The notes below the pieces were generated by a model. That model had not been told where the DNA came from, did not search any database, and was given only the letters and a program-made list of their open reading frames with translations. The position numbers were made by a program, and so were the translations under genes. This document shows, in pieces, positions 1 through 64,000 of a stretch of DNA of 64,000 nucleotides. The stretch covers positions 102,324-166,323 of the forward strand of contig CAMPDV010000914.1 of the NCBI GenBank assembly GCA_946699065.1, read 5' to 3'. Source of the DNA: Loxodes magnus. Taxonomy: Eukaryota; Ciliophora; Karyorelictea; Loxodida; Loxodidae. How positions within the stretch are numbered: the stretch's first letter is position 1; each line of letters opens with the position of its first letter.

Positions 1-1104
1 TTATCTGTGGCTATATCCAGTGATTCAGAGTTCATTGTATCGGGAAGTAGAGATAATACGGTGAGACTATGGGACGTCAAGACAGGTACCTGTAAGACCA
101 TGAGTGGTCACACAGGTTATGTATTATCTGTGGCTATATCCAGTGATTCAGAGTTCATCGCATCGGGAAGTAGAGATAATACGGTGAGACTATGGGACGT
201 CAAGACAGGTACCTGTAAGACCATGAGTGTTCACACTAGTGTTGTATATGCTGTGGCTATATCCAGTGATTCAGAGTTCATTGTATCGGGAAGTAGAGAT
301 AATACGGTGAGACTATGGGACGTCAAGACAGGTACCTGTAAGACCATGAGTGTTCACACTAGTGTTGTATATGCTGTGGCTATATCCAGTGATTCAGAGT
401 TCATTGTATCGGGAAGTAGAGATAATACGGTGAGACTATGGGACGTCAAGACAGGTACCTGTAAGACCATGAGTGGTCACACAGGTTATGTATTATCTGT
501 GGCTATATCCAGTGATTCAGAGTTCATTGTATCGGGAAGTAGAGATAATACGGTGAGACTATGGGACGTCAAGACAGGTACCTGTAAGACCATGAGTGTT
601 CACACTAGTGTTGTATATGCTGTGGCTATATCCAGTGATTCAGAGTTCATCGTATCGGGAAGTAATGATTATACGGTGAGACTATGGGACGTCAAGACAG
701 GTACCTGTAAGATCATGAGTGGTCACACTAGTTATGTATCATCTGTGGCTATATCCAGTGATTCAGAGTTCATCGTATCGGGAAGTAGAGATAATACGGT
801 GAGACTATGGGACGTCAAGACAGGTACCTGTAAGATCATGAGTGGTCACACTAGTTATGTATCATCTGTGGCTATATCCAGTGATTCAGAGTTCATCGTA
901 TCGGGAAGTAGAGATGAGACGGTGAGACTATGGGACGTCAAGACAGGTAGCTGTAAGACTATGAGTGGTCACACAGTTTCTGTATCATCTGTGGCTATAT
1001 CCAGTGATTCAGAGTTCATCGTATCGGGAAGTAGAGATGAGACGGTGAGACTATGGGACGTCAAGACAGGTACCTGTAAGACTATGAGTGGTCACGCAAA
1101 TTAG
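1..1104 (+). CDS. WD40 repeat protein segment, about 9 blades, open at left edge
   Basis: The frame is open from base 1, where it starts inside a blade, so this is the end of a longer segment whose start lies outside the window. Three junctions read SVHT instead of SGHT, losing the Gly of the GH pair. Later blades carry NDY with KIM, then RDE turns and a GSC tail. The last three blades recur before positions 5163 and 7869. It ends at a TAG (1102-1104) where sister units carry Tyr or Val. No partner domain is visible. Function beyond propeller formation is unknown. Confidence 0.55.
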   Translation, partial: LSVAISSDSEFIVSGSRDNTVRLWDVKTGTCKTMSGHTGYVLSVAISSDSEFIASGSRDNTVRLWDVKTGTCKTMSVHTSVVYAVAISSDSEFIVSGSRDNTVRLWDVKTGTCKTMSVHTSVVYAVAISSDSEFIVSGSRDNTVRLWDVKTGTCKTMSGHTGYVLSVAISSDSEFIVSGSRDNTVRLWDVKTGTCKTMSVHTSVVYAVAISSDSEFIVSGSNDYTVRLWDVKTGTCKIMSGHTSYVSSVAISSDSEFIVSGSRDNTVRLWDVKTGTCKIMSGHTSYVSSVAISSDSEFIVSGSRDETVRLWDVKTGSCKTMSGHTVSVSSVAISSDSEFIVSGSRDETVRLWDVKTGTCKTMSGHAN

Positions 1105-1113
1105 GTATATGCT

Positions 1114-4100
1114 GTGGCTATATCCAGTGATTCAGAGTTCATTGTATCGGGAAGTAGAGATAATACGGTGAGACTATGGAACTTCAAGACAGGTACCTGT
1201 AAGACCATGAGTGGTCACACTAGTGTTGTATATGCTGTGGCTATATCCAGTGATTCAGAGTTCATCGTATCGGGAAGTAGAGATAATACGGTGAGACTAT
1301 GGAACTTCAAGACAGGTACCTGTAAGACCATGAGTGGTCACACTAGTGTTGTATATGCTGTGGCTATATCCAGTGATTCAGAGTTCATCGCATCGGGAAG
1401 TAGAGATAATACGGTGAGACTATGGGACGTCAAGACAGGTACCTGTAAGACCATGAGTGTTCACACTAGTGTTGTATATGCTGTGGCTATATCCAGTGAT
1501 TCAGAGTTCATTGTATCGGGAAGTAGAGATAATACGGTGAGACTATGGGACGTCAAGACAGGTACCTGTAAGACCATGAGTGGTCACACTAGTGTTGTAT
1601 ATGCTGTGGCTATATCCAGTGATTCAGAGTTCATTGTATCGGGAAGTAGAGATAATACGGTGAGACTATGGGACGTCAAGACAGGTACCTGTAAGACCAT
1701 GAGTGGTCACACACATTATGTATTATCTGTGGCTATATCCAGTGATTCAGAGTTCATTGTATCGGGAAGTAGAGATAATACGGTGAGACTATGGAACTTC
1801 AAGACAGGTACCTGTAAGACCATGAGTGGTCACACTAGTGTTGTATATGCTGTGGCTATATCCAGTGATTCAGAGTTCATCGCATCGGGAAGTAGAGATA
1901 ATACGGTGAGACTATGGAACTTCAAGACAGGTACCTGTAAGACCATGAGTGGTCACACTAGTGTTGTATATGCTGTGGCTATATCCAGTGATTCAGAGTT
2001 CATTGTATCGGGAAGTAGAGATAATACGGTGAGACTATGGGACGTCAAGACAGGTACCTGTAAGACCATGAGTGGTCACACTAGTGTTGTATATGCTGTG
2101 GCTATATCCAGTGATTCAGAGTTCATTGTATCGGGAAGTAGAGATAATACGGTGAGACTATGGGACGTCAAGACAGGTACCTGTAAGACCATGAGTGGTC
2201 ACACTAGTGTTGTATATGCTGTGGCTATATCCAGTGATTCAGAGTTCATTGTATCGGGAAGTAGAGATAATACGGTGAGACTATGGGACGTCAAGACAGG
2301 TACCTGTAAGACCATGAGTGGTCACACTAGTGTTGTATATGCTGTGGCTATATCCAGTGATTCAGAGTTCATCGTATCGGGAAGTAGAGATAATACGGTG
2401 AGACTATGGGACGTCAAGACAGGTACCTGTAAGACCATGAGTGGTCACACAGGTTATGTATTATCTGTGGCTATATCCAGTGATTCAGAGTTCATTGTAT
2501 CGGGAAGTAGAGATAATACGGTGAGACTATGGAACTTCAAGACAGGTACCTGTAAGACCATGAGTGGTCACACACATTATGTATTATCTGTGGCTATATC
2601 CAGTGATTCAGAGTTCATTGTATCGGGAAGTAGAGATAATACGGTGAGACTATGGGACGTCAAGACAGGTACCTGTAAGACCATGAGTGGTCACACTAAT
2701 TCTGTATTATCTGTGGCTATATCTAGTGATTCAGAGTTCATTGTATCGGGAAGTAGAGATAATACGGTGAGACTATGGAACTTCAAGACAGGTACCTGTA
2801 AGACCATGAGTGGTCACACACATTATGTATTATCTGTGGCTATATCCAGTGATTCAGAGTTCATTGTATCGGGAAGTAGAGATAATACGGTGAGACTATG
2901 GGACGTCAAGACAGGTACCTGTAAGACCATGAGTGGTCACACTAATTCTGTATTATCTGTGGCTATATCTAGTGATTCAGAGTTCATTGTATCGGGAAGT
3001 AGAGATAATACGGTGAGACTATGGAACTTCAAGACAGGTACCTGTAAGACCATGAGTGGTCACACTAGTGTTGTATATGCTGTGGCTATATCCAGTGATT
3101 CAGAGTTCATCGCATCGGGAAGTAGAGATAATACGGTGAGACTATGGAACTTCAAGACAGGTACCTGTAAGACCATGAGTGGTCACACTAGTGTTGTATA
3201 TGCTGTGGCTATATCCAGTGATTCAGAGTTCATCGCATCGGGAAGTAGAGATAATACGGTGAGACTATGGAACTTCAAGACAGGTACCTGTAAGACCATG
3301 AGTGGTCACACTAGTGTTGTATATGCTGTGGCTATATCCAGTGATTCAGAGTTCATTGTATCGGGAAGTAGAGATAATACGGTGAGACTATGGGACGTCA
3401 AGACAGGTACCTGTAAGACCATGAGTGGTCACACTAGTGTTGTATATGCTGTGGCTATATCCAGTGATTCAGAGTTCATTGTATCGGGAAGTAGAGATAA
3501 TACGGTGAGACTATGGGACGTCAAGACAGGTACCTGTAAGACCATGAGTGGTCACACTAGTGTTGTATATGCTGTGGCTATATCCAGTGATTCAGAGTTC
3601 ATCGTATCGGGAAGTTATGATTATACGGTGAGACTATGGGACGTCAAGACAGGTACCTGTAAGACCATGAGTGGTCACACAGGTTATGTATTATCTGTAG
3701 CTATATCCAGTGATTCAGAGTTCATCGTATCGGTAAGTAATGATTATACGGTGAGACTATGGGACGTCAAGACAGGTACCTGTAAGACCATGAGTGGTCA
3801 CACTAGTTATGTATCATCTGTGGCTATATCCAGTGATTCAGAGTTCATCGTATCGGGAAGTCATGATTATACGGTGAGACTATGGGACGTCAAGACAGGT
3901 ACCTGTAAGATCATGAGTGGTCACACTAATTCTGTATTATCTGTGGCTATATCTAGTGATTCAGAGTTCATTGTATCGGGAAGTAGAGATAATACGGTGA
4001 GACTATGGAACTTCAAGACAGGTACCTGTAAGACCATGAGTGGTCACACACATTATGTATTATCTGTGGCTATATCCAGTGATTCAGAGTTCATTGTATC

Positions 4101-62920: not shown

Positions 62921-63724
62921 GTGAGACTATGGGACGTCAAGACAGGTACCTGTAAGACCATGAGTGGTCACACAGATTCTGTATTATCTGTGGCTATATC
63001 CAGTGATTCAGAGTTCATCGTATCGGGAAGTCATGATGAGACGGTGAGACTATGGGACGTCAAGACAGGTACCTGTAAGACCATGAGTGGTCACACAGAT
63101 TCTGTATTATCTGTGGCTATATACAGTGATTCAGAGTTCATCGTATCGGGAAGTTATGATGAGACGGTGAGACTATGGGACGTCAAGACAGGTACCTGTA
63201 AGACCATGAGTGGTCACACTAGCTATGTATGATCTGTGGCTATATCCAGTGATTCAGAGTTCATCGTATCGGGAAGTCATGATGAGACGGTGAGACTATG
63301 GGACGTCAAGACAGGTACCTGTAAGACCATGAGTGGTCACACAGATTCTGTATTATCTGTGGCTATATCCAGTGATTCAGAGTTCATCGTATCGGGAAGT
63401 CATGATGAGACGGTGAGACTATGGGACGTCAAGACAGGTACCTGTAAGACCATGAGTGGTCACACAGATTCTGTATTATCTGTGGCTATATCCAGTGATT
63501 CAGAGTTCATCGTATCGGGAAGTCATGATGAGACGGTGAGACTATGGGACGTCAAGACAGGTACCTGTAAGACCATGAGTGGTCACACAGATTCTGTATT
63601 ATCTGTGGCTATATCCAGTGATTCAGAGTTCATCGTATCGGGAAGTCATGATGAGACGGTGAGACTATGGGACGTCAATACAGGTACCTGTAAGACCATG
63701 AGTGGTCACACAGATTCTGTATGA
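62921..63724 (+). pseudogene. WD40 fragments, 2.5 + 4 blades
   Basis: Piece 62921-63232 is the third AIYSDS/YDE/SYV-TGA copy. Piece 63236-63724 has four HDE blades, the last with DVN, and ends at DSV-TGA. The same order with a frameshift is at 57577-58066. Confidence 0.45.
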
Positions 63725-64000
63725 TCTGTGGCTATATCCAGTGATTCAGAGTTCATCGTATCGGGAAGTCATGATGAGACGGTGAGACTATGGAACGTCA
63801 AGACAGGTACCTGTAAGACCATGAGTGGTCACACAGATTCTGTATGATCTGTGGCTATATCCAGTGATTCAGAGTTCATCGTATCGGGAAGTCATGATGA
63901 GACGGTGAGACTATGGAACGTCAAGACAGGTACCTGTAAGACCATGAGTGGTCACACAGATTCTGTATTATCTGTGGCTATCTCCAGTGATTCAGAGTTC
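63725..64000 (+). pseudogene. WD40 units to the right edge
   Basis: Two HDE-NVK units, with DSV-TGA at 63845-63847 and an ATCTCC variant in the last partial unit. The array continues beyond the window. Confidence 0.5.

What the first reader, a model, noticed from the sequence alone, without database searches (positions are those of the whole stretch)
1..64000. A 64-kb array made solely of near-identical WD40 blades
About 520 head-to-tail 41-residue blades with nothing else is far beyond ordinary WD40 proteins, which usually carry 7 to 14. The scaffold is almost invariant, including silent sites, so the array is young or continually homogenised. Whether it is a coding giant, a coding-derived satellite or an inactive archive is unresolved.
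Basis: partly seen in the sequence, partly recalled or inferred. Interest (0 to 1): 0.85.

Follow-up and report, generated by a model that had tools for sequence, protein, structure and literature searches.

The report
Ciliate satellite built from receptor blades
The sequence lies inside an enormous repeat array, very probably in the genome of the ciliate Loxodes magnus, made from the middle blades of a large family of seven-bladed receptor-like proteins: parts of ordinary genes seem to have been blown up into many millions of bases of near-identical DNA that still carries their variable, surface-facing residues.

Summary
In detail: the 64 kb are 520 head-to-tail 123-bp WD40 blades. The whole 166,323-bp contig is the same array (1,352 blades), with no flank. 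The 706-Mb assembly matches the published Loxodes magnus macronuclear assembly (karyorelict ciliate, code 27), so in-frame TAA/TAG/TGA codons, 357 of 358 in five hypervariable codons, read as Gln and Trp. A 27-mer of the unit occurs 381,530 times: at least 47 Mb of the assembly. Genes with the same blades exist. The four I read (kinase or Cys-rich heads) carry exactly seven blades; in the three with this blade family, blades 2-4 match the array even at silent sites, the outer blades much less. At least 150 gene heads are found. Two large arrays begin in mid-blade beside non-genic DNA. My verdict: a coding-derived satellite, amplified from and sharing sequence with diversifying receptor-like genes, not one giant protein; whether it serves as an archive of specificities is open. 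Seven window blades fold confidently as a propeller. The 85 one- or two-base indels look mostly like read errors. The variable codons coincide, by spacing, with those of fungal HET-E/HET-D sensors. Expression and true copy number are untested.

The parts
1..64000 (+). Tandem array of 123-bp WD40 blades, about 520 copies; part of a 166,323-bp array contig (C914:102324-166323)
9..131 (+). Example unit (aligned start 9). Codons counted from A of AISSD; variable codons are 13, 15, 35, 36, 38, with 21, 22 and 34 also variable
88..948 (+). Seven consecutive blades predicted as a closed seven-bladed propeller
   Evidence: AlphaFold2 pLDDT 96.8, pTM 0.93; Foldseek 7big_A TM 0.95, rmsd 0.9
1..15076 (+). 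Stretch without indel relative to the unit: one frame if TAA/TAG/TGA are read as residues
   Evidence: first indel at 15077
27652..49036 (+). Longest stretch of the window without indel
   Evidence: indels at 27651 and 49037
15077..27651 (+). Patch with 12 of the 21 single-base indels, probably mostly read or consensus errors
49037..61813 (+). Patch with the other 9 of 21 single-base indels; the deletions at 49037 and 50758 lie in a 234-bp exact repeat (48911-49144 and 50632-50865) and look inherited
36909..38495 (+). Longest exact block duplication, first copy (1,587 bp)
44412..45998 (+). Longest exact block duplication, second copy, 61 units downstream

Best explanation
The array is a coding-derived satellite in the macronuclear genome of (very probably) the karyorelict ciliate Loxodes magnus. 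SHOWN: genes exist that combine a head (a TKL-type kinase, or a Cys-rich head), in three of four a pentapeptide stretch, and exactly seven WD40 blades; in the three genes with this blade family, blades 2-4 are of the window's type. The same unit fills long arrays. Most unit variation lies in five codons, and the same five are variable in two other blade families of this genome. INFERRED: the seven-blade proteins are receptors whose propeller top face binds varied ligands; diversifying selection changes the five codons while unequal crossing-over and exchange between loci keep the scaffold uniform. The central blades, being near-identical tandem repeats, escaped into runaway array growth and now spread and homogenise as satellite DNA with little constraint of their own, while still sharing sequence with the genes. 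The window is such an array, not an expressed protein of 20,000 residues.
For: Window placed in a 705,730,643-bp assembly; the paper gives 706 Mbp for the L. magnus MAC assembly, 231 Mbp of it tandem repeats, and code 27. 381,530 exact 27-mers, 0 in the reversed control; 1,294 in the 1,352 units of the contig. Pfam finds 7 WD40 stretches in each of the C2, C3 and C5 genes and the C512 gene has 7. Gene blades 2-4 against the array consensus, variable codons left out: 281 of 292 same-residue codons identical, against 95 of 213 for blades 1, 5, 6, 7 (summed); best array unit 108-120 of 123 bases for the nine central blades. C4 and C6 array edges start in mid-blade beside non-genic or decayed DNA; a three-blade fragment lies alone in AT-rich DNA. 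Scaffold variants in the contig 42 replacement to 17 silent against opportunities 247 to 77, those seen once 13 to 4; variable codons 32 to 1 against 40 to 5. An 87-base stretch of the C5 gene, variable codons included, occurs 149 times, in runs spaced by multiples of about 123.
Against: The frame is kept over long stretches (33.2 kb without any indel) and no indel of three or more bases was seen among 85, as a coding array would show. The scaffold ratio is slightly below neutral. Both ends of this array are unassembled, so a gene start or stop could lie just outside. The C9 array of another family has an in-frame leader that I cannot judge. The matching stretch of the C2 gene occurs only twice in the genome, so not every gene shares its variable codons with arrays. 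Outer blades also are fairly alike between genes at silent sites (blade 6: 89 of 100; blade 7: 101 of 121), so homogenisation is strongest but not confined to blades 2-4. No RNA or protein data were available.
Confidence: 0.65

Rival explanations
1. Archive: the arrays are a silent library of recognition specificities. Short exchange tracts copy variable codons from array units into the seven-blade genes, as variant-antigen archives do elsewhere (recalled).
For: Gene and array blades share scaffold at silent sites. Of nine central gene blades, 6 have their 35/36/38 codon triple among 1,426 array units sampled and 2 have their 13/15 pair. An 87-base C5 stretch occurs 149 times. Arrays C4, C6 and C914 hold different repertoires. 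Variation is almost confined to the codons that matter for binding.
Against: Direction of exchange is not shown: genes may seed arrays instead. The C2 stretch is found only in C2 and at one other place. Seven of nine 13/15 pairs were not in the sampled arrays. No tracts were traced between strains.
Confidence: 0.2
2. Coding giant: the array is one gene (or a few) that encodes a protein of at least thousands of blades, read in code 27.
For: Frame kept over up to 33.2 kb; indels look like read errors; seven window blades fold well; under code 27 no codon in the array is an obligate stop.
Against: Genes with these blades have exactly seven (4 of 4 read). Edges at C4 and C6 lack a head. The unit count is near 400,000 over many contigs. 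Scaffold changes at structural residues are tolerated (Asp14 to Tyr in 17 of 1,352 units, Gly32 changed in 40).
Confidence: 0.1
3. Assembly inflation: shorter arrays were over-extended or folded back by the assembler, so that 166-kb arrays and 47 Mb are largely artefacts.
For: On C1368 all 11 minus-strand copies of an 87-base stretch mirror plus-strand copies around about 111,077, and C1487 also turns strand, as unsplit PacBio hairpins would. The authors themselves suspect misassembly of low-complexity repeats. Indels are patchy.
Against: C914 is all one strand: 1,296 anchor matches forward, 0 reverse. Unit order is irregular, with 269 distinct units and many block lags, not a looped copy. [quoted passage not shown]
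Confidence: 0.05

Closest known systems
HNWD / HET-D, HET-E NLRs of Podospora anserina: WD40 sensors with high internal conservation
   Same: Near-identical WD40 repeats (42 aa there, 41 here, 42 in a sister family), concerted evolution with exchange between family members, variable sites on the propeller surface. The seven positions used to classify repeats there (10, 11, 12, 14, 30, 32, 39) fall by spacing on codons 34, 35, 36, 38, 13, 15, 22 here (my mapping).
   Different: No NACHT in the rows shown for the genes read here; 7 blades per gene, not 11 plus three cryptic ones; kinase or Cys-rich heads; satellite-scale arrays, whereas the fungal survey's largest WD count was 21.
Low-complexity tandem repeats of Loxodes magnus (231 Mbp of the MAC assembly, PMC11441545)
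   Same: By size and code the same assembly; arrays of at least 1 kb were found by TRF and masked.
   Different: WD40 does not occur in the main text (0 occurrences); that part of these repeats derives from genes is not said in the passages I saw. Supplements could not be read here.
Natural and designed near-symmetric propellers (PDB 2ymu, 7big, 5yzv)
   Same: Same fold; TM 0.93-0.95 to the window model.
   Different: Single proteins with up to 14 blades (2ymu has 577 residues), no satellite context.
Gene-derived satellite DNA (general class, recalled; PMC6947457 seen only as an abstract start)
   Same: Head-to-tail near-identical units, very high copy number, block duplications.
   Different: The unit is exactly one protein repeat, keeps its frame, and most of its variation lies in five binding-face codons.

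Membership tests
WD40 repeat / seven-bladed propeller | Pfam WD40 match and propeller fold | tested here: met
Fungal HNWD-type NLR | WD40 repeats with high internal conservation (at least 85% over 100 aa) | tested here: met
   94.6% mean nucleotide identity to consensus; definition
Fungal HNWD-type NLR | Same variable positions | tested here: met
   codons against positions; mapped by spacing
Fungal HNWD-type NLR | NACHT or other NTPase domain next to the repeats | tested here: not met
Fungal HNWD-type NLR | Allorecognition function | not testable with these tools
   no functional data
Satellite DNA | Long head-to-tail arrays at very high genomic copy number | tested here: met
   copy number in the cell untested
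Satellite DNA | Not expressed as protein | not testable with these tools
   no RNA or protein data; ratios only suggest weak constraint
Karyorelict code (NCBI table 27) | TAA/TAG = Gln, TGA = Trp inside genes | tested here: met
   C5 gene with 40 such codons, kinase E 1.2e-60 on its head, one frame
Loxodes magnus MAC assembly | Assembly size, code, repeat richness | tested here: met
   705,730,643 bases against 706 Mbp; no named record seen
Subtelomeric variable gene family with silent archive | Genes near chromosome ends, pointing outward | tested here: inconclusive
   57 of 89 minus-strand heads within 30 kb of a contig start against 17 of 61 plus-strand heads; telomere repeats not sought, contig sizes mixed
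Subtelomeric variable gene family with silent archive | Donor-to-gene conversion tracts | tested here: inconclusive
   one of two gene stretches found in array-like runs; direction unknown

The most novel reading that the evidence does not exclude
A single-celled eukaryote keeps tens of megabases of frame-preserving receptor-blade repeats as a genomic library of recognition specificities. Hundreds of seven-blade receptor genes (kinase-headed or Cys-rich-headed), many near contig ends, draw variable codons from it by short exchange tracts. It would be a diversity-generating system at satellite scale, parallel to the high-conservation sensors of fungal NLRs but in a ciliate and without NACHT.
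Probability: 0.2. Interest if true: 0.93.

Novelty: new variant of a known kind. Interest (0 to 1): 0.82.

Why it matters
If right, at least 47 Mb of a sequenced ciliate assembly, of a class masked in the published work as low-complexity repeat, is amplified sensor sequence from a family of at least 150 receptor-like genes. That ties together three open matters: how near-identical repeat sensors are homogenised and diversified at once, how satellites are born from coding sequence, and what a free-living ciliate recognises. The same five codons are variable in three diverged blade families here and match, by spacing, the variable sites of fungal allorecognition sensors, so the same logic appears outside fungi and apparently without NLR domains. 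Reads and RNA-seq are described in the paper, so the archive and expression questions can be tested directly.

Tried and rejected
Prokaryotic or viral origin: 9 loci from genome contigs at 28-44% identity and no exact match in viral contigs; both tools may leave out the window's own genome. Rejected once the own assembly answered. Two protein searches found no close relative among the 120 rows listed each (identities up to 54%).

Decayed pseudogene because of in-frame stops: rejected, since 357 of 358 stop-like codons in the contig lie in five codons and genes use them as Gln and Trp. The enrichment alone was not decisive: in the window's 36 scaffold codons the one stop variant is near the neutral expectation (1 of 47 variants; 11 of 324 possible changes). 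Homologues show Trp at 10.0%, 11.4% and 5.5% at codons 13, 36, 38 and 0.3% at 15 (579 and 440 blades of 120 proteins), in line with TGA at 13, 36, 38 and TAA/TAG at 15, but Ser and Arg are about as common there, so that test alone did not fix the residue. In a sister array (C1503) TGA also fills codon 30 in 90 of 180 units, outside the five. One TAA at codon 38 in the window sits at an insertion and is probably an alignment effect.

Real frameshifts: mostly rejected. 85 indel events (82 of one base, 3 of two); gaps of 33.2, 24.9 and 21.4 kb, while the largest gap in 5,000 random placements was 21.9 kb and the third-largest never above 11.9 kb; 26 of 88 indel letters at the unit's only two GGG runs; 17 substitution variants seen once (not a like-for-like class, as indels at one column were not restricted to one copy). 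The paper polished only with reads of mapping quality 20 or more, which would leave repeats unpolished (my inference). Two indel kinds look inherited.

A retroelement-type mutator limited to adenines was considered; the variable codons also change at T, G and C, so it was not pursued. A seven-blade period along the array: lags 5, 2, 10, 1, 23 lead, with 14 and 7 also raised, so no clean period. A Pfam match for the Cys-rich heads of C2 and C3 was not found; RING-like is by eye. In one search the fifth query was out of frame by my mistake and counts for nothing; one search replaced it. The pentapeptide stretch is a Pfam match in C3 only and is assigned to C2 and C5 by alignment to C3 (47-51 of 71 residues identical).

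Papers: PMC11441545 by passages and one section; PMC12222747 abstract and passages; PMC4986451 passages. Searches are search listings only. No paper of the library holds both Loxodes and WD40; the claim that this is not in print rests on that search, and supplements could not be read.
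Full report
What is in the window. TRF sees one array over all 64,000 bases, period 123, 520.3 copies. A cyclic alignment gives 520 nearly complete units, 154 distinct, mean identity 94.6%. The unit encodes AISSDSEFIVSGSRDNTVRLWDVKTGTCKTMSGHTSYVLSV, a WD40 blade. Variation is uneven: five codons (13, 15, 35, 36, 38, counted from the first A) hold 68% of mismatches in the window and 76% in the contig, and identity elsewhere is 98.0% and 98.4%. At those five codons the contig shows 32 replacement variants and 1 silent one against opportunities of 40 and 5; in the other 36 codons 42 and 17 against 247 and 77.

Stops and code. Under the standard code 77 of 520 units hold a stop codon, and 79 of the 80 such codons lie in the five variable positions. 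Read as Trp (TGA) and Gln (TAA, TAG) they give familiar WD40 motifs such as GHxDWV and SGSWDKTV (familiar by recall). In 120 homologues Trp makes up 10.0%, 11.4% and 5.5% at codons 13, 36, 38 and 0.3% at 15, matching where TGA does and does not occur. This pointed to a karyorelict-type ciliate code before the genome tool answered.

Where it comes from. The own-genome search placed the window at C914:102324-166323 of an assembly of 705,730,643 bases in 7,843 contigs. The published Loxodes magnus macronuclear assembly has 706 Mbp, of which 231 Mbp are low-complexity tandem repeats, and the species uses code 27 (PMC11441545, passages). I take the identification as very likely; the tool itself names no organism. 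Tandem repeats of at least 1 kb were masked there, and WD40 does not occur in its main text.

The array is larger than the window. The contig is 166,323 bases and array from end to end, all in one orientation, with 1,352 units, 269 distinct. An exact 27-mer of the unit, present 492 times in the window and 1,294 times in the contig, occurs 381,530 times in the assembly and 0 times in the reversed control. At 123 bases each this is at least 46.9 Mb, about 6.6% of the assembly. The 31-mer of another blade family occurs 3,654 times, so this family stands out. Copy number in the cell is not established: on C1368 all 11 minus-strand copies of one stretch mirror plus-strand copies, a sign of misassembly.

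Indels. The contig has 85 indel events, 82 of one base and 3 of two. They cluster: gaps of 33.2, 24.9 and 21.4 kb, when 5,000 random placements never gave a gap above 21.9 kb. Substitution variants seen once number 17, and 26 of 88 indel letters fall on the two GGG runs of the unit. Real mutation is expected to give more substitutions than indels, so I read most as read or consensus errors; the paper's polishing used only reads of mapping quality 20 or more. Two kinds appear inherited.

The genes. Of five loci with short runs of such blades that I read, four are genes in code 27 and one is a fragment. C3: a Cys-rich head, a Gln-rich middle, a pentapeptide stretch (PF00805, 8.1e-5) and seven blades. 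C2: the same plan, read in two adjoining stretches. C5: a TKL-type kinase (PF07714, 1.2e-60), pentapeptide and seven blades, 829 aa with 40 stop-like codons. C512, with another blade family: a kinase (3.1e-57), seven blades and a TGA, with a one-base frame step or short intron between kinase and blades. Pfam counts seven WD40 stretches in each of C2, C3 and C5. Against the array consensus, variable codons left out, blades 2-4 have 281 of 292 same-residue codons identical, blades 1, 5, 6, 7 only 95 of 213 (summed); seven of the nine central blades match their best array unit at 116-120 of 123 bases, the two others (C3) at 108 and 112. Between genes, 275 of 295 same-residue codons are identical in blades 2-4 and 94 of 147 in the pentapeptide part (summed); the outer blades lie between (75 of 98, 80 of 97, 89 of 100 and 101 of 121 for blades 1, 5, 6, 7), so the contrast is clear for the pentapeptide part and weaker for blades 6 and 7. 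The C5 head finds at least 150 places at 68-100% identity (150 scored of 2,100 candidates); how many are intact genes was not checked.

Edges. Two large arrays of this family, C4 and C6, begin in mid-blade: C6 beside an AT-rich minisatellite, C4 below a frame-broken kinase and decayed blades. A three-blade fragment lies alone in AT-rich DNA at C2:248 kb. For the other family, C620 and C119 also start in mid-blade, C9 has an in-frame leader that I cannot judge, and its 3' end stops inside the last blade. The C272 array gives way to a 175-base minisatellite somewhere between 376.5 and 382.0 kb.

Position. Of the 150 heads, 57 of 89 on the minus strand lie within 30 kb of a contig start, against 17 of 61 on the plus strand. 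Ten plus-strand heads that I picked for high coordinates, a biased choice, lie 4-134 kb from the contig end, seven within 30 kb. Nine of ten contig starts examined are periodic AT-rich DNA, six with a period of about 80 bases or a multiple. This suggests subtelomeric or satellite-adjacent genes that point outward; telomere repeats were not sought.

Fold and comparison. Seven window blades are predicted as a closed seven-bladed propeller (pLDDT 96.8, pTM 0.93; best PDB match 7big_A, TM 0.95). The variable codons lie in the d-a and b-c loops, which form the top face (recalled). The seven positions used to classify HET-D/HET-E repeats, 10, 11, 12, 14, 30, 32, 39, fall by spacing on codons 34, 35, 36, 38, 13, 15, 22. 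Two other blade families of this genome (125 and 17 units) are variable in the same five codons, among a few further ones such as codon 30 in family B; TGA occurs at 36 in both, and TGA at 38 and TAA at 15 in one. The 180 C1503 units, of the same second family, vary at 13, 36 and 38 but little at 15 and 35.

Mechanism. Shown: many more blades than genes need, near-uniform scaffold across genes and arrays, variation focused on five codons, seven-blade genes. Inferred: receptor function, unequal exchange as the motor, loss of constraint in arrays. An 87-base C5 stretch with its variable codons occurs 149 times (100 listed, 55 of them on C1368), spaced in multiples of about 123 bases, while the matching C2 stretch occurs only twice. 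So sharing is real for one of two, and its direction is unknown. I put the coding-derived satellite at 0.65, the archive at 0.2, the coding giant at 0.1, and assembly inflation as the main story at 0.05.

Noticed in passing
G000:C1368:25126-123557 and C1487:11622-11889: Copies of one stretch are mirrored around about 111,077 on C1368 (11 of 11 minus-strand sites) and the strand also turns on C1487: palindromes, perhaps unsplit PacBio hairpins.
   Followed up: partly
L080-L082, L086, L087, L089 and L091 (contig starts of C5, C10, C11, C57, C71, C49, C14): Several megabase contigs begin with a shared AT-rich minisatellite of about 80 bases; possibly subtelomeric.
   Followed up: partly
L034 (G000:C9:1-600): A 168-base tandem repeat (99% self-match) that also stays open in one frame under code 27; may or may not be coding.
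   Followed up: no
L066 (G000:C2:246501-250500): A reverse-transcriptase-like frame (YADDIV motif, by eye) close to the orphan three-blade fragment.
   Followed up: no
L062 (G000:C4:2222501-2226100): A frame-broken kinase resembling the C512 kinase, followed by decayed WD40 blades, just before a large array.
   Followed up: partly
window 1-64000, codon 20 against codons 13, 36, 38: The conserved Trp is always TGG, whereas every Trp in the variable codons is TGA, never TGG.
   Followed up: no
window 48911-49144 and 50632-50865: A 234-bp exact repeat carries the same one-base deletion twice, one of few indels that look inherited.
   Followed up: yes
L044-L048, L071, L072 (G000:C272:250001-376500): A third blade family (ALSNDTKWIVSGS...) sampled at intervals over about 126 kb, with TGA at the usual Trp position of GHENWV.
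   Followed up: partly
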